A stretch of DNA of 39,290 nucleotides, taken from NCBI GenBank assembly GCA_030731855.1, contig JANQTG010000177.1, positions 1 through 39,290 on the forward strand, read 5' to 3'. Both the position numbers and the translations under genes were made by a program. Positions 1,427 to 29,892 of the stretch are shown piece by piece. The DNA is from Cellulophaga sp. Lineage in GTDB: Bacteria > Bacteroidota > Bacteroidia > Flavobacteriales > Flavobacteriaceae. The notes beneath the pieces are model-generated. The model did not search any database and was not told where the DNA came from. It worked only from the letters and a program-made list of their open reading frames with translations. Numbering within the stretch: the first letter of the stretch is position 1; each line of letters starts with the position of its first letter.

Positions 1427-2212
1427 TCAATTATTAGACGTTTTCATATCCTCACGAAGTTCAAAATAAAAAGTGTCAAATTTTGGATACACTTTAATAT
1501 TCATTCCTTCTGAAAAACCACCATCTTTTGCAACGGGACTGATGCGGCTTGAAGTAATGCTATATTGTTTCAAAAATTTATTCACTACCAAAGTAGCCTG
1601 ATTTAGGGCAACATCAAACTCACCAGTATTCGTGATTGCCTCAATGACAATATTCGTATCTCTATAATTTTTTAATACCGTGGCTATTTTGTTTATGGTT
1701 GCCTCGGCAACTGCTTTTTCATCTGCATTTTTACTCGTTAGGCCATCGCGAGTTGCTTGATTTAATGCCACTACTATCGCACCATTCGTTACGTTAATAT
1801 TTGCCGTTTCCCCTAAAGCTTTTTTAAAATCTGTTAGAACTAATAAGGCGATAGAATCATGCGAATTGAAACGATCTGTTATTTTTTTTAATTGAATTTC
1901 TTTAGCGCGTAAACTTTCTAAAGTCTTACCAATATTTTCTGATTTTTCGATAGATGCAGACGTAAAATTGTTGATGTTTTGCATCAACGATCTATTGGTT
2001 TCTAACAATTCGTCTGCTTGTGCTTTGTATGATTCTGACTCAGTTTTACTGACTATTTCTTTTTTTCTTGAAATAGCTAACTGATTTTGAACAGAATCTT
2101 TCGCTGATTTTAAATTTTCAATTTCTTGTAGTAAATCGCTCTTTTTTTGAGCTTGCGTTTGATGAACACTGATAAGAATAATACAAATCAAAAAATAATT
2201 TTTAAGCATCAT
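1427..2212 (-). CDS. Exported coiled-coil protein with a degenerate OmpA-like C-terminus
   Basis: This 261-residue protein has a signal peptide ending about residue 21 (HQTQAQ). A coiled-coil region spans about residues 22-115 and a globular C-terminal domain about 120-261. The layout and the ending (PKFDTFYFELREDMK) match the OmpA-family lipoprotein at 12734-13585, whose end reads PKIDQFYEMIEEGMK. The two are therefore probable paralogues. The usual OmpA peptidoglycan-binding signatures are missing here: the GHTDN element reads AITNTGE, LSxxRA reads ALNQAT, and NRRTRI reads EGMNIKV. It also lacks the lipobox Cys. It is probably periplasmic, and its role is unknown. Two adjacent ATGs make the exact start uncertain by one codon. 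Confidence 0.75.
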   Translation of the reverse strand: MMLKNYFLICIILISVHQTQAQKKSDLLQEIENLKSAKDSVQNQLAISRKKEIVSKTESESYKAQADELLETNRSLMQNINNFTSASIEKSENIGKTLESLRAKEIQLKKITDRFNSHDSIALLVLTDFKKALGETANINVTNGAIVVALNQATRDGLTSKNADEKAVAEATINKIATVLKNYRDTNIVIEAITNTGEFDVALNQATLVVNKFLKQYSITSSRISPVAKDGGFSEGMNIKVYPKFDTFYFELREDMKTSNN

Positions 2213-2266
2213 TGGTAATAATAATTTATTAGTTAATAAAAGTTCGATTAAATATTATTTTATTTT

Positions 2267-3817
2267 TTATTGTCGTTTTCCTCCTAAATAAACACAATTT
2301 TGAAGTGCTTCAATACCATCAAAAGTCACAGTGCTTTTCTGATATTTATAGGTACTTCTTAAGGTTCTGGTTAAATCGGTATCGTCTACATTTACCTGAA
2401 TATCATCCATGTTAAACTGACAAGGATGTTCATAGCCTGCGGCATGGGTAATTTCTAAAAACTCTTTTCTAAAGGTTTTAAAATATTGCCCCAATCGCTC
2501 CGACTTTAAGGTAACATCAATTCCGTTTTGCAACCATTTATTTTGCGTTGCAATTCCTGTCGGACATCGGTTGGTATGGCATACTTGCGCTTGAATGCAA
2601 CCTATACTCATCATGGCTTCACGTGCCACGTTGATACAATCTGCACCCATAGCAAAAGCCATAGCAGCTTTTGCAGGAAATCCTAATTTACCGCTGCCTA
2701 TAAATACAATTCTATCCGCAAGGCCTCTATCTAAAAATACTTTATATAAGCTCGAAAAACCATAGACCCAAGGCAACGAAACGTGATCTGCAAAACTTGG
2801 AGGTGCAGCACCAGTACCACCTTCACCACCATCAACGGTTATAAAATCTGGTCCTTTTCCCGTTTTGACCATTAAATCTGCCAAATGTTCCCATTGGTCT
2901 AATTTTCCGATGGCAGCCTTAATTCCCACAGGTAATCCTGTTTCTTCTGCAATTTTTTCAATAAGTACCAGTAATTCTGGAATACTTTTGAAAGCTTTGT
3001 GTGTTGCTGGAGAAAGTACATCTTTACCTACTTCAACGCCTCTAATTTCTGCCAATTCGGGCGTTATTTTTGCGCCAGGTAGCACTCCACCTTTACCAGG
3101 TTTTGCGCCTTGTGAAAGTTTAATTTCAATCGCTTTAATACATGGATTATCTGCTACTAATTTTTTAAGCTTTTCCATAGAAAGACTTCCTTCTTCAGAA
3201 CGAACTCCAAAATAACCTGTTCCAAAATGAAAAATAACATCGCCACCTTGTTTATGGTATGGTGAAAGTCCGCCTTCGCCAGTATTATGATATGCATCTG
3301 CTTTTTCAACCCCTTTATTCATAGCTTCAACCGCTGCTGCGGAGAGGGAACCAAAACTCATTGCAGAAACATTAATTATAGATGCAGGCCTATAAGGTTT
3401 TTTCCGTTTGTTAAATTCCCCCATAATTTTTGCACAGGGTACAAAGCTTGCATCTAAAAAGTTGGGGTGGTTTTCGGGCAATTCATACGCTAACATTTGA
3501 TTTTTAATAAAGATGTGTTGGTGTGCATAAATATCTCTATCAGTACCAAATCCTTCGTAGTTATTTTGCTTTTTTGAAGAGGCGTAAATCCAACTGCGCT
3601 CTATTCTATTAAAAGGAAGCTCCTCACGGTTGTTAGCCACAAAATACTGACGCATTTCTGGACCAATACTTTCTAACCAATAGCGTAAATGCCCAACAAC
3701 CGGAAAGTTATGGGAAATAGTATGTGCTCGTTGTACAAAAATATCTCTAATGGCTACGATAAAAAGGAAAAGTAAAACCCAAGCCCACCAAGGAATATTT
3801 TTTAAAAAGTCAATCAT
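2267..3817 (-). CDS. Membrane-anchored FMN-binding glutamate synthase-family protein
   Basis: This 516-residue protein has one N-terminal membrane segment (about residues 8-24, rich in Trp). A domain homologous to the FMN/synthase domain of the glutamate synthase large subunit follows. Visible family marks are GEGGLSPYH, the lysine-rich phosphate-binding stretch around KLSQGAKPGKGG, TVDGGEGGTGAAP, and a C-x5-C-x4-C cluster at about residues 406-417 that matches the 3Fe-4S ligands of GltB. The glutaminase and C-terminal GXGXG domains of full GltB are absent. It therefore probably does not make glutamate from glutamine alone, and its substrate cannot be inferred. Flavin and 3Fe-4S binding is known for the family and inferred here. 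Confidence 0.9.
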   Translation of the reverse strand: MIDFLKNIPWWAWVLLFLFIVAIRDIFVQRAHTISHNFPVVGHLRYWLESIGPEMRQYFVANNREELPFNRIERSWIYASSKKQNNYEGFGTDRDIYAHQHIFIKNQMLAYELPENHPNFLDASFVPCAKIMGEFNKRKKPYRPASIINVSAMSFGSLSAAAVEAMNKGVEKADAYHNTGEGGLSPYHKQGGDVIFHFGTGYFGVRSEEGSLSMEKLKKLVADNPCIKAIEIKLSQGAKPGKGGVLPGAKITPELAEIRGVEVGKDVLSPATHKAFKSIPELLVLIEKIAEETGLPVGIKAAIGKLDQWEHLADLMVKTGKGPDFITVDGGEGGTGAAPPSFADHVSLPWVYGFSSLYKVFLDRGLADRIVFIGSGKLGFPAKAAMAFAMGADCINVAREAMMSIGCIQAQVCHTNRCPTGIATQNKWLQNGIDVTLKSERLGQYFKTFRKEFLEITHAAGYEHPCQFNMDDIQVNVDDTDLTRTLRSTYKYQKSTVTFDGIEALQNCVYLGGKRQ

Positions 3818-26576: not shown

Positions 26577-27353
26577 TCAAACCGCCTCTTTCTTCTCACT
26601 TAAATATTTCCAATAGCGTTTTGGAACGTGTTGGTTGTGTAATTTCAAATTAATGCGAGATTTAATGTTGGTGCTTTTAAAGTAATTATTCCAAAGATCT
26701 TGATAGTCATATTCTGCATTGGTAAAGGCACTACTTTTATTGATGCTGTTCGTATGAATTTCGTTCAAATCTAACGTAATAATTTCAACAGAATTTAAAT
26801 CATAGAACAAGCCATATTTACGTTTTACATCATAAATAAGCCATTGTTGGTCTGCATAACGCGAACGAAAATGTTTTGAAATTAAAGGCAATACATCAAA
26901 ATCGGGTTCTATATTAGCGAAATAAATACTGTCTTTAGTAAGCTGAAAACGAACAAATGCCTCCATTCTATGCTTTTCTCTTCCGACAGATTTCGCTAAC
27001 TGACTAATTCGTAAAACGGTGTCATCAGAAAAATTCAAATGCATAAATTCTGTTTTAGAAAATAATTTTTGAATATACCGATAGAGTAGGAGTTCTCTAT
27101 TTTTTGTTTCACTTAAAAAAGTAAAATAGATGTTCTTAATTGCTATATTACTTTTCTTTTCAATACCGCTCCAAACCCTTTTAGCTTTATCCATTTCAGT
27201 AAAAACAATTTCAGTTTCTGAGAATAAACCTCTTTGCACATCAGAGTTCTTTTGAATATCTGCTATCTGAATTCGTTCATCAAAAGCTTTAAAGACGCAG
27301 GTTAAGAATCCATTAAAACTTCCATCGTAAATTAAAATTTTTGCTTCTCTCAT
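26577..27353 (-). CDS. Partner of the radical SAM DNA-modification/repair-type protein (TIGR03915-like)
   Basis: This 258-residue protein begins ILIYDGSFNGFLTCVF, the characteristic opening of the family usually annotated as a probable DNA metabolism protein. It continues with GREKHRMEAFVRFQ and PLISKHFRSRY, and near the end NVPKRY-type residues (HVPKRYWKYL). The family is known to be encoded with the radical SAM protein found next to it here. In some genomes it is fused to a uracil-DNA glycosylase-like domain, which is absent in this copy. Its biochemical function is not established. It is the third gene of the minus-strand unit after the radical SAM gene and a small open frame, with 200 nt of hairpin repeats just before it. 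Confidence 0.88.
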   Translation of the reverse strand: MREAKILIYDGSFNGFLTCVFKAFDERIQIADIQKNSDVQRGLFSETEIVFTEMDKAKRVWSGIEKKSNIAIKNIYFTFLSETKNRELLLYRYIQKLFSKTEFMHLNFSDDTVLRISQLAKSVGREKHRMEAFVRFQLTKDSIYFANIEPDFDVLPLISKHFRSRYADQQWLIYDVKRKYGLFYDLNSVEIITLDLNEIHTNSINKSSAFTNAEYDYQDLWNNYFKSTNIKSRINLKLHNQHVPKRYWKYLSEKKEAV

Positions 27354-27368
27354 AACAATTATTTTTTT

Positions 27369-27476
27369 ATTCCCTTGAAGAAGGGAATCTCATAATTAAT
27401 CACTTTTATCATTTCCGCAAAGGCGGAAATCTCCTAATTTAAAACGTTTAATTGATTCCCAGCGAAGACGGGATTC
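27369..27476. repeat. Cluster of three small hairpin repeats
   Basis: Hairpin 1 is ATTCCCTT-GAAG-AAGGGAAT (27369-27388). Hairpin 2 is ATTTCCGC-AAAG-GCGGAAAT (27411-27430). Hairpin 3 (27454-27476) is a degenerate form with GATTCCC and GGGATTC. The first two are perfect with 4-nt loops, and all are of one type followed by TCT or TCTC-like tails. They lie between the small ORF at 27562 and the TIGR03915-like gene, and may affect mRNA processing or be a dispersed repeat family. Confidence 0.75.
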
Positions 27477-27561
27477 TGAATAATCTAATTAATATTTTAT
27501 TAAATGCTTGAAGTAAAATGGTCAAAAGTCTAAATGGGTAATAGATTAGACGATAAACCCT

Positions 27562-27720
27562 CTAATCCAAAATTCTTTGTCCTATATTTCCTTTTTGAAA
27601 CGATACATTATAACGTATTTTAATAGCTTTCTTAATCCTACTTTTGAACTCTACAAAACCGTAACCAAGATTTAAAATAGCAAATCGACCTTTTTCTAAA
27701 TAAGCATGTGACTGTTTCAT
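27562..27720 (-). CDS. Possible small protein between the radical SAM gene and its partner
   Basis: An open frame of 52 codons starts with ATG at 27720 and begins 36 nt after the radical SAM stop. The product is basic, with the central phrase GFVEFKSRIKKAIKIRYNV. I recognise no family. Position in the operon and a clean ATG favour a real gene, but the length is near what chance can give. The remaining sequence of the 403-nt gap between the two larger genes is the hairpin cluster and AT-rich spacer. Confidence 0.4.
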   Translation of the reverse strand: MKQSHAYLEKGRFAILNLGYGFVEFKSRIKKAIKIRYNVSFQKGNIGQRILD

Positions 27721-27756
27721 ATCGTTTTTGATTAATTTAGTTTATTGTTTTTTTCT

Positions 27757-29016
27757 TTAATTAAATAGCGACAATTGGTTGCTGTATTGATTTCTAAATT
27801 TTCCTTGAGAATTCTGTAAAATCAAGCCTTTAATTTGGGAAGCTTGCAAATCTTTTTGAGAATTATTAGTATCACAAACCATAAAATATTTTGCTCGGTT
27901 TAGTGCAACACCAATCTTTTTGAGATGTTCCCAATTTAATCGTCTAAATTTTCTAGCTTGTATAATTTTATTTACAGAATACATCCCTAAACCTGGTATT
28001 CTTGCCAACATTCTTGGTTCAGCTGTATTGACATCAATCGGAAAATCATTCAAATTACGCAATGCCCATCCTAATTTTGGATCTATATCTATATCTAAAT
28101 TCGGGTGCTTTTCGTTTAATATTTCTTGAACACTAAAACCGTAAAACCGAAGTAACCAATCTGTTTGGTATAATCTATTTTCACGCAACATCGGTACTTG
28201 CGAACCAAAGGCTGGTAAACGAACATCATCAGCAACAGGAACATAACCCGAATAATAAACCCGTTTCATGTTATAATTTTTGTAATAATGAACCGCAGAG
28301 TACATAATATCTTTATCTGATTCGCCTGTAGCCCCAATAATCATTTGAGTACTTTGACCAGCCAGAGCATATTTAGGGGTGCTTTTTATAATTTTCTTCT
28401 CGGCTTGGTATTGAATAATTTCATTCTTAACCTTCAACATGGGTTTAGTGAAATCTTCGTGTTTTTTATCGGGTGCTAACAATTTAAGTCCGGAAATAGT
28501 TGGGACCTCAATATTAACCGATAAACGATCGGCATACAAACCAGCTTCTCGCATTAATTCATCACTAGCACCAGGTATCGATTTTAAATGGATATAGCCA
28601 TTAAATTTTTCTTCTAATCGTAATTTTTTAGCCACAGCGACTAAACGTTCCATGGTGTAATCAGCGCTTTTAAAAATACCAGAGCTTAAAAAAAGACCTT
28701 CAATATAATTTCTACGATAAAAATTAATGGTCAAATCCACCACTTCTTGAATTTTAAAACCAGCTCTTTTTATGTCGTTGCTTTTTCTGGTAACACAATA
28801 GGCGCAATCGAAAATGCAATGGTTAGTCAATAGTATTTTCAACAACGAAACACAACGACCGTCTTCTGTGTATGTATGACAAATGCCCATCCCAGAACTA
28901 TCTCCTAAGCCCTTATTGGTATTCGTTCGTTTACTACCACTACTAGAACACGACACATCATATTTGGCTGCATCAACTAAAATGTTCAATTTTTCTTTTA
29001 TTCTTTCGAAGGACAT
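27757..29016 (-). CDS. Radical SAM protein, putative DNA modification/repair type (TIGR03916-like)
   Basis: This 419-residue protein has the radical SAM CxxxCxxC motif at C67, C71 and C74 (HCIFDCAYC), which holds a 4Fe-4S cluster and cleaves S-adenosylmethionine. Further Cys residues lie at positions 23, 46 and 55. A TIM-barrel-like part follows, then a helix-hairpin-helix DNA-binding element near 335-370 (IPGLGMYSVNKIIQARK). The combination fits the family annotated as putative DNA modification/repair radical SAM protein, always found with a partner like the one at 26577. The reaction is unknown. Its promoter lies in the control region shared with the S24 regulator. Confidence 0.93.
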   Translation of the reverse strand: MSFERIKEKLNILVDAAKYDVSCSSSGSKRTNTNKGLGDSSGMGICHTYTEDGRCVSLLKILLTNHCIFDCAYCVTRKSNDIKRAGFKIQEVVDLTINFYRRNYIEGLFLSSGIFKSADYTMERLVAVAKKLRLEEKFNGYIHLKSIPGASDELMREAGLYADRLSVNIEVPTISGLKLLAPDKKHEDFTKPMLKVKNEIIQYQAEKKIIKSTPKYALAGQSTQMIIGATGESDKDIMYSAVHYYKNYNMKRVYYSGYVPVADDVRLPAFGSQVPMLRENRLYQTDWLLRFYGFSVQEILNEKHPNLDIDIDPKLGWALRNLNDFPIDVNTAEPRMLARIPGLGMYSVNKIIQARKFRRLNWEHLKKIGVALNRAKYFMVCDTNNSQKDLQASQIKGLILQNSQGKFRNQYSNQLSLFN

Positions 29017-29037
29017 ACGCTCGCTTTGTAATTAATC

Positions 29038-29045
29038 CAAATTTA
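29038..29045 (-). promoter_or_regulatory. Predicted -7 promoter box of the radical SAM gene, TAAATTTG
   Basis: The minus strand reads TAAATTTG, a TAnnTTTG match, 22 nt before the start codon. It overlaps by four bases the left arm of the inverted repeat at 29042-29080, so binding there would block RNA polymerase. Confidence 0.6.
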
Positions 29046-29080
29046 TGGAATATTTCCTAATTATGGAAATATTCCATAAA
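29042..29080. promoter_or_regulatory. Perfect inverted repeat, 16-nt arms, probable operator 1
   Basis: TTTATGGAATATTTCC (29042-29057) is exactly complementary to GGAAATATTCCATAAA (29065-29080), with a 7-nt AT-rich spacer. Each arm also contains the near-palindrome GGAATATTTCC or GGAAATATTCC, so two dimers could bind side by side. It lies between the divergent start codons of the radical SAM protein and the S24 regulator. Confidence 0.8.
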
Positions 29081-29083
29081 ATA

Positions 29084-29102
29084 TTTTGGATATAATCCAA
29101 AA
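29084..29102. promoter_or_regulatory. Perfect inverted repeat, 8-nt arms, probable operator 2
   Basis: TTTTGGAT (29084-29091) and ATCCAAAA (29095-29102) are separated by ATA. It ends 4 nt before the predicted -7 box of the S24 regulator and so falls in the promoter spacer. A further ATCCAAA half-site occurs at 29035-29041 near the other promoter. Confidence 0.75.
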
Positions 29103-29106
29103 AGCG

Positions 29107-29114
29107 TATATTTG
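29107..29114 (+). promoter_or_regulatory. Predicted -7 promoter box of the S24 regulator, TATATTTG
   Basis: A perfect TAnnTTTG match, 22 nt before the ATG at 29137. It is flanked on its upstream side by operator 2. Confidence 0.65.
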
Positions 29115-29136
29115 GTTGAATTACAGGACTATTTTT

Positions 29137-29892
29137 ATGGAAAATGAACTAACATTAAAGCGATTTATTGATATACGACGCGACTTAGGCTTTACCCAGG
29201 CAGAGTTTGCAGCGCTTTTGGGTGTCTCTAACACAACAGCCGATATAGAACGCGGAAGAACAAAATTATCTGGTAAAATTGTGGTAGAATTATTTAAACA
29301 GTTTAAAATAAATCCGCTTTGGCTTTTTGGCGATAGTGAAAATAAATATTTAGAAAGTTCCAATACCAGCGTAATTCCGAAAGTAGTTACCGTAAGTAAT
29401 TCCGACAATGAAAACATGGTATTAGTCAATGCGAAAGCTGCTGCAGGGTATCCACAAAATATACAAGATACTAGTTGGTACCAACAATTGCCAGCGTTTG
29501 ATTTACCGATCCCTGAATTTAGAAATGCCACCTACCGAGGTTTTCAAGTAGAAGGCGATAGTATGTTGCCTAATTTAAAACCTGGTGATTGGGTTTTAGC
29601 AAGAGCGATAGAACATATTGATGATGTGAGTCCGAATAAAATATATGTGGTGGTGTTGCAAGACGCTGTCTTGGTGAAGAAAGTCATCAAAAAACCTAAT
29701 TCTAACAATGTTACTTTAGTTTCTTTAAATGAAACCTATCCACCCTACGAGATTAAACCTTTTCAAATTCAAGAAATTTGGCAGGTAAATAGTAAAATTA
29801 CGTTTGGAGTCGATGCCACTACCGAAACGGGACTTCTACGACAATTACAAGAGTCTATGGAAGAGTTGAAGAGCCAGTTGAAGAAGGTCTAA
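29137..29892 (+). CDS. LexA-like regulator: HTH joined to an S24 peptidase domain
   Basis: The start is the ATG at 29137 (MENELTLKRF). A TTG 51 nt upstream is not needed and lies in the operator. The 251-residue product has an XRE-type helix-turn-helix (about 10-50, FTQAEFAALLGVSNTTADIERGR) and an S24 peptidase domain (about 95-220). An Ala103-Gly104 bond in AKAAAGYPQ fits the self-cleavage site of LexA/UmuD proteins. Ser142 in EGDSMLP and Lys181 or Lys182 in VLVKKV fit the Ser-Lys pair. By analogy it represses until activated RecA causes cleavage. Phage CI-type repressors share this architecture, but no phage genes are near. Confidence 0.92.
   Translation: MENELTLKRFIDIRRDLGFTQAEFAALLGVSNTTADIERGRTKLSGKIVVELFKQFKINPLWLFGDSENKYLESSNTSVIPKVVTVSNSDNENMVLVNAKAAAGYPQNIQDTSWYQQLPAFDLPIPEFRNATYRGFQVEGDSMLPNLKPGDWVLARAIEHIDDVSPNKIYVVVLQDAVLVKKVIKKPNSNNVTLVSLNETYPPYEIKPFQIQEIWQVNSKITFGVDATTETGLLRQLQESMEELKSQLKKV

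What the first reader, a model, noticed from the sequence alone, without database searches (positions are those of the whole stretch)
26577..29892. Radical SAM / TIGR03915-like pair under a LexA-like regulator: a candidate uncharacterised DNA repair or modification system
A radical SAM protein with C67/C71/C74 and a C-terminal helix-hairpin-helix is encoded with its usual partner and divergently from an S24 regulator that has an apparent Ala-Gly cleavage site and Ser-Lys pair. The families are only annotated as putative DNA modification/repair; no reaction is established. Damage-triggered derepression is inference from the regulator type. The uracil-DNA glycosylase-like fusion domain seen in other genomes is absent here.
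Basis: partly seen in the sequence, partly recalled or inferred. Interest (0 to 1): 0.75.

Follow-up and report, generated by a model that had tools for sequence, protein, structure and literature searches.

The report
Likely damage-induced DNA repair operon
A flavobacterium carries, next to the switch gene of its DNA-damage response, a pair of little-studied genes whose products probably ride on the DNA replication ring and repair or alter damaged DNA; the damage control was largely published already, but the docking tail, a tiny extra gene and the likely shapes of the proteins are new clues.

Summary
The three genes are real: DUF4130/TIGR03915 partner 26577-27353(-), TIGR03916 radical SAM 27757-29016(-), S24 regulator 29137-29892(+; ATG start). 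The regulator is not a private switch. It is the Flavobacteriaceae non-canonical LexA of PMC8565304: three of its published GGA-N5-TCC boxes fill the shared promoter, as in all 13 loci of this layout among 60 genomes (window included), and further boxes precede dinB-dnaE/SRAP and umuDC here. The missing UDG fusion is the rule in Bacteroidota (0 of 296 genomes over the TIGR03914 cut-off). New here: the radical SAM protein ends in QLSLF, the beta-clamp docking peptide (strict QLxLF in 69 of 80 relatives versus 0 of 734 other ORFs; also in Proteobacteria); three extra invariant cysteines; a partner model resembling DHH/RecJ folds (weak, structure only); and an unannotated, conserved 52-aa ORF between the two genes. 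Best reading: an SOS-induced, clamp-tethered radical SAM enzyme acting on damaged DNA. The reaction remains unknown. Novelty moderate.

The parts
26577..27353 (-). Partner gene, 258 aa, TIGR03915 / DUF4130, no UDG domain
   Evidence: AF2 model pLDDT 88.6
27565..27720 (-). Unannotated 52-aa ORF, conserved microprotein candidate (LEKxRxxILxLGYxFIxFKSxLKK); stop codon just beyond
   Evidence: 12 by pattern, plus L137 by BLAST, of 26 S24-bearing loci; 0 of 99 others; third-position bias
27757..29016 (-). Radical SAM gene, 419 aa, TIGR03916; C67/C71/C74 cluster motif, extra invariant C23/C46/C55, HhH about 323-366
27763..27777 (-). Codons for C-terminal QLSLF (residues 414-418), predicted beta-clamp docking peptide
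   Evidence: motif in review PMC9690074 (passage)
29038..29045 (-). TAAATTTG, candidate -7 promoter element of the radical SAM operon, at the edge of box 1
   Evidence: TAnnTTTG consensus PMC9723704 (passage)
29047..29057 (.). LexA-type box 1, GGAATATTTCC (GGA-N5-TCC)
29065..29075 (.). LexA-type box 2, GGAAATATTCC
29088..29098 (.). LexA-type box 3, GGATATAATCC
29107..29114 (+). TATATTTG, candidate -7 promoter element of the S24 gene
29137..29892 (+). [quoted passage not shown]

Best explanation
This is an SOS operon. The S24 protein is the organism's non-canonical LexA; it sits on three GGA-N5-TCC boxes beside or over both divergent promoters. After damage, RecA filaments would trigger cleavage at A103-G104 and free both sides. 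The radical SAM protein is then made with the microprotein and the DUF4130 partner, together with the DinB/DnaE and UmuDC polymerases. Its flexible C-terminal QLSLF tail docks it on the beta sliding clamp at stalled or freshly copied DNA, the HhH domain holds DNA, and SAM-derived radical chemistry, perhaps helped by a second metal site at C23/C46/C55, directly reverses or alters a damaged base. DUF4130, a DHH/RecJ-like fold without the catalytic motif, presents the DNA. Shown by sequence: genes, boxes, their conservation, tail and cysteines. Inferred: cleavage, clamp binding, second cluster, partner fold, substrate.
For: At least three boxes in 13 of 13 S24-adjacent loci (window included), none in the 350 nt before rSAM in the other 11 of 24. 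In 80 named loci, boxes in 10 of the 11 with a divergent S24 within 400 nt and 0 of 69 others; one of those 69 (L145) has S24 further off with two boxes in between; the sister motif CTAA-N5-TTAG precedes rSAM in 26 of 80 versus 13 of 617 other promoters. TAnnTTTG follows a box in 10 of 10. Same motif at SRAP/dinB-dnaE and umuDC here, genes named by eye. EMSA and mitomycin induction are published for relatives (PMC8565304, passages). QLxLF strict in 69 of 80 rSAM C-termini, 0 of 734 other ORFs; also in proteobacterial plasmid relatives over a divergent linker; tail modelled disordered; own DinB has QINLF. Six invariant Cys. rSAM and partner co-occur in 91 of 93 rSAM genomes. A family member rises on desiccation in Acinetobacter Tol 5 (PMC13130816, passage).
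Against: No experiment on this pair was found in the searches named below. recA here has no box. A stricter pattern (WWTGGAN5TCCAWW) was not enriched genome-wide: 6 sites versus 16 for the reversed control; 4 of the 10 sites of the looser pattern look like chance, and in the sister genome that pattern gives only 7 against 5. Boxes of either kind were not seen within 300 nt in the Chryseobacterium, Flavobacterium and Moraxellaceae loci, so SOS control is not universal. Six of 80 lack the relaxed tail motif. One relative, G035, keeps the partner (58% identical) beside S24 with no rSAM match, so the pair is separable. The rSAM model is poor over residues 21-59. The DHH match has no sequence support: profile scores no better than reversed controls.
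Confidence: 0.6

Rival explanations
1. Base-excision system: the pair serves uracil or misincorporation repair together with a uracil-DNA glycosylase, as PMC8565304 suggests for COG1573-COG4277; here the glycosylase would be supplied in trans.
For: In six of six fetched proteobacterial plasmids the partner is fused to a UdgX domain with GEQPG; UdgX cross-links to uracil-DNA (PMC10359453, abstract start in a search listing). 218 of 296 Bacteroidota genomes hold some weaker UDG-like match.
Against: 0 of 296 Bacteroidota genomes have TIGR03914 over cut-off, and the own genome none at E 1e-3; no UDG-like ORF called in the 80 loci with flanks up to 6 kb, though my ORF picker recovered only 4 of the 6 known fusions as control; 95 of 96 partner frames are at most 371 aa. 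Other UDG families were not searched.
Confidence: 0.15
2. DNA or nucleoside modification rather than repair: the radical SAM protein writes a base change, e.g. sulfur insertion from an N-terminal sacrificial cluster as in lipoyl synthase.
Against: The N-terminal stretch has pLDDT under 50; ties forbid naming one family; damage-induced, clamp-docked expression fits repair better.
Confidence: 0.12
3. Error-prone tolerance factor: the clamp tail and partner recruit or regulate DinB/UmuC polymerases; the radical chemistry is secondary.
For: Co-regulated with dinB-dnaE and umuDC; clamp motif shared with DinB.
Against: The radical SAM motif and extra Cys are invariant, which implies catalysis.
Confidence: 0.13

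Closest known systems
Non-canonical Bacteroidetes LexA, GGA-N5-TCC group (Sanchez-Osuna 2021, PMC8565304)
   Same: HTH_3 plus S24, Ala-Gly and Ser-Lys, own promoter with GGA-N5-TCC, same motif at dinB-dnaE, SRAP and umuDC
   Different: Here lexA is divergent from the radical SAM operon with three boxes of near-fixed spacing; recA is not boxed
COG1573-COG4277 SOS operon (PMC8565304)
   Same: COG4277 is taken to be the TIGR03916 protein (recalled mapping); SOS motif upstream
   Different: The Bacteroidota partner has no UDG domain, so the label 'uracil-DNA glycosylase system' does not seem to fit here
Proteobacterial TIGR03916 plus UdgX-DUF4130 fusion (e.g. Phaeobacter, L214)
   Same: Two-gene order, radical SAM core, C-terminal QLxLF-like tail
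   Different: Partner fused to UdgX; linker before the tail differs
SplB-like radical SAM photolyases (association with DUF4130 noted in PMC3765255, passage)
   Same: Radical SAM, DNA repair context, SOS regulon
   Different: No spore photoproduct lyase family among the NCBIfam rows at E up to 1; nearest fold rows LipA/HydE/BioB
DHH/DHHA1 proteins (PAP phosphatase, RecJ, Cdc45)
   Different: No DHH string in 57 of 57 partners, no sequence-profile support

Membership tests
Non-canonical LexA, GGA-N5-TCC group | HTH plus S24 domain | tested here: met
   PF01381 29.5 and PF00717 53.6 bits, both over cut-off
Non-canonical LexA, GGA-N5-TCC group | Scissile Ala-Gly and Ser-Lys residues | tested here: met
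   A103-G104, S142, K181/K182
Non-canonical LexA, GGA-N5-TCC group | GGA-N5-TCC in own promoter and before other SOS genes | tested here: met
   three boxes; dinB-dnaE/SRAP and umuDC; recA negative
Non-canonical LexA, GGA-N5-TCC group | RecA-stimulated self-cleavage and DNA binding | not testable with these tools
   needs protein; binding published for relatives only
TIGR03916 | Score over curated cut-off, CxxxCxxC | tested here: met
   653.9 versus 343.5 bits; C67/C71/C74
TIGR03916 | C-terminal helix-hairpin-helix | tested here: inconclusive
   PF12836 25.2 bits, cut-off 27; weak profile match to ComEA/RuvA
TIGR03915 / DUF4130 | Score over cut-off | tested here: met
   274.9 versus 112.25 bits; 184.7 versus 27
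UdgX / TIGR03914 | UDG domain in partner or genome | tested here: not met
   no match in own genome at E 1e-3; none in the partner scans
Beta-clamp client | C-terminal QL(S/D)LF-type peptide | tested here: met
   QLSLF here; 69 of 80 relatives strict, 74 of 80 relaxed
Beta-clamp client | Binding to DnaN | not testable with these tools
   needs protein
Spore photoproduct lyase | Family match | tested here: inconclusive
   none among NCBIfam rows at E up to 1; an unlisted fold is not excluded
DHH/DHHA1 superfamily (partner) | Sequence-profile similarity and DHH motif | tested here: not met
DHH/DHHA1 superfamily (partner) | Fold | tested here: inconclusive

The most novel reading that the evidence does not exclude
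A replication-clamp-docked radical SAM enzyme: a cross-phylum, damage-induced direct-reversal (or base-editing) machine with a second N-terminal metal site, a DHH-fold partner and, in this clade, a microprotein subunit, distinct from photolyases, spore photoproduct lyase and base excision, and independent of UdgX.
Probability: 0.3. Interest if true: 0.85.

Novelty: new member of a known kind. Interest (0 to 1): 0.55.

Why it matters
TIGR03916/TIGR03915 is widespread (over cut-off in 93 and 96 of 296 Bacteroidota genomes) yet no reaction was found for it in the searches made. The clamp tail gives a first, cheap handle: it predicts where the enzyme works and how to pull it down. The finding also suggests that the published label of this SOS operon as a uracil-glycosylase system does not fit Bacteroidota, where rSAM plus DUF4130 is the conserved core and UdgX an add-on seen here in Proteobacteria.

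Tried and rejected
Private regulator: rejected, because the same boxes precede other SOS genes. Loss of the UDG domain peculiar to this lineage: rejected. Anti-phage system: PADLOC gave nothing for the pair and only two weak rows for S24; 10 of 50,697 phage records hold a relative, not followed. Solved structure of either protein: none convincing by sequence (one search gave HhH and radical SAM fragments at E 0.004 or worse, only S100 rows at E 0.18 or worse). Partner as active RecJ-type nuclease: no DHH motif and no profile support. Strict genome-wide box pattern: not enriched. Pfam on the small ORF: no family for three versions. Spore photoproduct lyase was not among the 50 fold rows, which excludes nothing. 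Literature: in the listings seen (22 of 23 papers; 10 and 11: one each; 40: 25 of 41; 41: 40 of 345; 44: none; 72: 15 of 53; 111: 6 of 6) no title or abstract start told of a clamp motif, a structure or a reaction for this family; of the papers I opened only PMC8565304, PMC3765255, PMC9690074, PMC9723704, PMC13130816 and PMC9611098, in sections or passages.
Full report
Observation. The three genes are present as described. The regulator's start is better placed at the ATG 29137 (251 aa) than at the listed TTG 29086, because close relatives align from that Met. C67/C71/C74, A103-G104, S142 and K181/K182 are in place. The HhH is weak by Pfam (25.2 bits, cut-off 27) but the region also draws weak ComEA and RuvA matches.

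Host. Handle G003, placed in the window's genus, has a contig of the same length (882,358) as Cellulophaga sp. 20_2_10 Scaffold1, so the window is probably from Cellulophaga in the genome taxonomy used; this is inference. L014 and L141 are then the same locus.

Regulator and operators. PMC8565304 (abstract, section 13 and passages read) describes S24 repressors that run the SOS response of Bacteroidetes and bind GGA-N5-TCC, chiefly in Flavobacteriaceae, or CTAA-N5-TTAG. Between rSAM and S24 lie three GGA-N5-TCC boxes. Of 60 genomes, own included, 24 have rSAM. In 13 of these 24 loci (the window and 12 others) S24 is divergently adjacent (113-172 nt) and all 13 carry three or more boxes, mostly at 23 and 18 nt spacing (L012 differs); among the 11 others the only box in 400 nt is one at -352 in L002. 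The close S24 group (44% identity or more) is in 25 of the 60 genomes: 13 beside the pair, one (G035) beside the partner alone, 11 elsewhere. Ten of these have boxes; the 11th (L141) has a different S24 type. None of the other 69 has a GGA box within 300 nt of rSAM, but in one of them, L145 (Aquimarina), S24 stands one gene further off and two boxes lie between it and a DUF559-rSAM-partner row. CTAA-N5-TTAG is within 300 nt in 26 of 80. Among 617 other promoters the counts are 32 for GGA and 13 for CTAA. Loci are related, so these are not independent events. A flavobacterial -7 element TAnnTTTG (PMC9723704, passage) follows a box in 10 of 10 and is found on both sides of the boxes in the window. 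Occlusion by a repressor is the natural reading.

Regulon in this genome. The pattern WWWWGGAWWWWWTCCWWWW has 10 sites, against 3 for the reversed control; in the sister genome G014, 7 against 5. The sites are three here, two between an SRAP gene and dinB-dnaE, one (plus a second, looser box) before umuDC, and four that look like chance, one of them inside a ribosomal protein gene (genes named by eye from their sequence). A stricter pattern was not enriched, 6 against 16. The recA locus has none; PMC8565304 likewise reports no apparent recA induction in S. agarivorans.

A second S24 type. In six same-family loci (L005, L009, L010, L011, L014, L017) the gene divergent from rSAM is another HTH-S24 protein of 200-201 aa with a Cys-Gly site; two of the six were scanned and both matched PF00717 at about 101 bits. 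Their shared regions hold a similar ATATCATAATATGA-type palindrome (read by eye). Thus different S24 repressors have come to face the same operon, which strengthens the damage link.

Pair and UDG. In 296 Bacteroidota genomes rSAM is over cut-off in 93 and the partner in 96; 91 are shared, the two rSAM-only cases lie at contig ends, and five are partner-only or have a broken or partial rSAM. Of the partner frames, 95 of 96 are at most 371 aa; G287 has 478 (not followed). In the named loci 77 of 80 have a partner ORF, 218-307 aa. TIGR03914 is over cut-off in 0 of 296; weaker UDG-like matches occur in 218, none in the own genome. No UDG-like ORF was called in the 80 named loci, with the caveat that the same ORF picker recovered 4 of 6 known fusions. 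In six fetched proteobacterial plasmids the partner is annotated as UdgX family; all six have GEQPG, five match [KR][KR][KR]xH and the sixth reads KQRLH. Hence rSAM plus DUF4130 is the core and UdgX an addition. PMC8565304 reads the operon as a uracil-glycosylase system; for Bacteroidota that label looks wrong, though I could not see which COG1573 proteins it used.

Clamp tail. The 23-protein alignment shows near-invariant QLxLF at the C-terminus. In the 80 named loci strict QLxLF is in the last 20 residues of 69, relaxed in 74; 0 of 734 other ORFs of at least 100 aa has it. The six misses include QLSLGF in two Acinetobacter loci, one Brachymonas MAG and degenerate forms in three Bacteroidales. 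Nine plasmid relatives were fetched. Of the eight annotated, Spirosoma, Thioclava, Phaeobacter and Azospirillum end in QLSLF or QLALF; Rhizobium, Caballeronia and Paracoccus end in QLSLL, QLSLI and QLALL; Parabacteroides ends QLILPFID; the sequence before the tail is not conserved. The ninth (Gemmatirosa, 30% identical) has QLSLW about 25 residues before the end of its ORF. A review gives QL(S/D)LF at the C-terminus as the bacterial clamp motif, and warns that it tolerates variation (PMC9690074, passage). The own DinB carries QINLF; among the window ORFs of 80 aa or more that my script picked, a QLxLF-like pentapeptide occurs only in rSAM. The AF2 model has pLDDT under 50 at 412-419.

Microprotein. 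A 52-aa ORF at 27565-27720(-) lies between rSAM and partner. BLAST finds it at the same place in relatives. Of 130 loci given, 125 had both genes; a motif pattern finds the ORF in 12 of the 26 that hold S24 (window included) and 0 of 99 without; L137 adds a 13th by BLAST. Window versus L020 shows 7, 6 and 18 changes at codon positions 1, 2 and 3; L019/L020 2, 2, 9; L020/L021 9, 9, 14; two closer pairs are uninformative. Pfam knows nothing like it.

Verdict. An ordinary member of a published SOS regulon in its control, but with a testable clue, unreported in the listings named under Tried and rejected, to how a widespread unknown enzyme works.

Noticed in passing
window 27565-27720(-): Conserved 52-aa ORF between rSAM and partner, found only in S24-linked loci.
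   Followed up: yes
L042 (G035), 1486-3216: Partner gene sits beside S24 with three boxes but the genome has no TIGR03916 match: the partner can exist alone.
   Followed up: partly
L096 2779-2961(-): A 60-aa ORF between the boxes and rSAM ends in QLNLFD, a second clamp-type tail.
   Followed up: partly
L145 5631-6011(+): A DUF559 (endonuclease-like) gene lies between S24 and rSAM in an Aquimarina relative, with two boxes before it.
   Followed up: partly
L005, L009, L010, L011, L014, L017: A different HTH-S24 protein with a Cys-Gly site faces rSAM, with its own conserved palindrome.
   Followed up: partly
window 27354-27470: Short inverted repeats (e.g. TTCCCTTGAAGAAGGGAA) upstream of the partner look like dispersed intergenic repeats; seen by eye, not tested.
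   Followed up: no
phage records CAKLQH020000003.1, CAKLQF020000004.1: Two 240-kb records named Acinetobacter phage hold a 63% identical radical SAM gene.
   Followed up: no
L062 and L071: A box-like site near alaS and a neighbouring gene is kept in both G000 and G014; could be a further SOS site or chance.
   Followed up: no
G287:C1:402739-403605: The one Bacteroidota partner frame of 478 aa, with an insertion or extension; its genome also has a weak UDG-like match.
   Followed up: no
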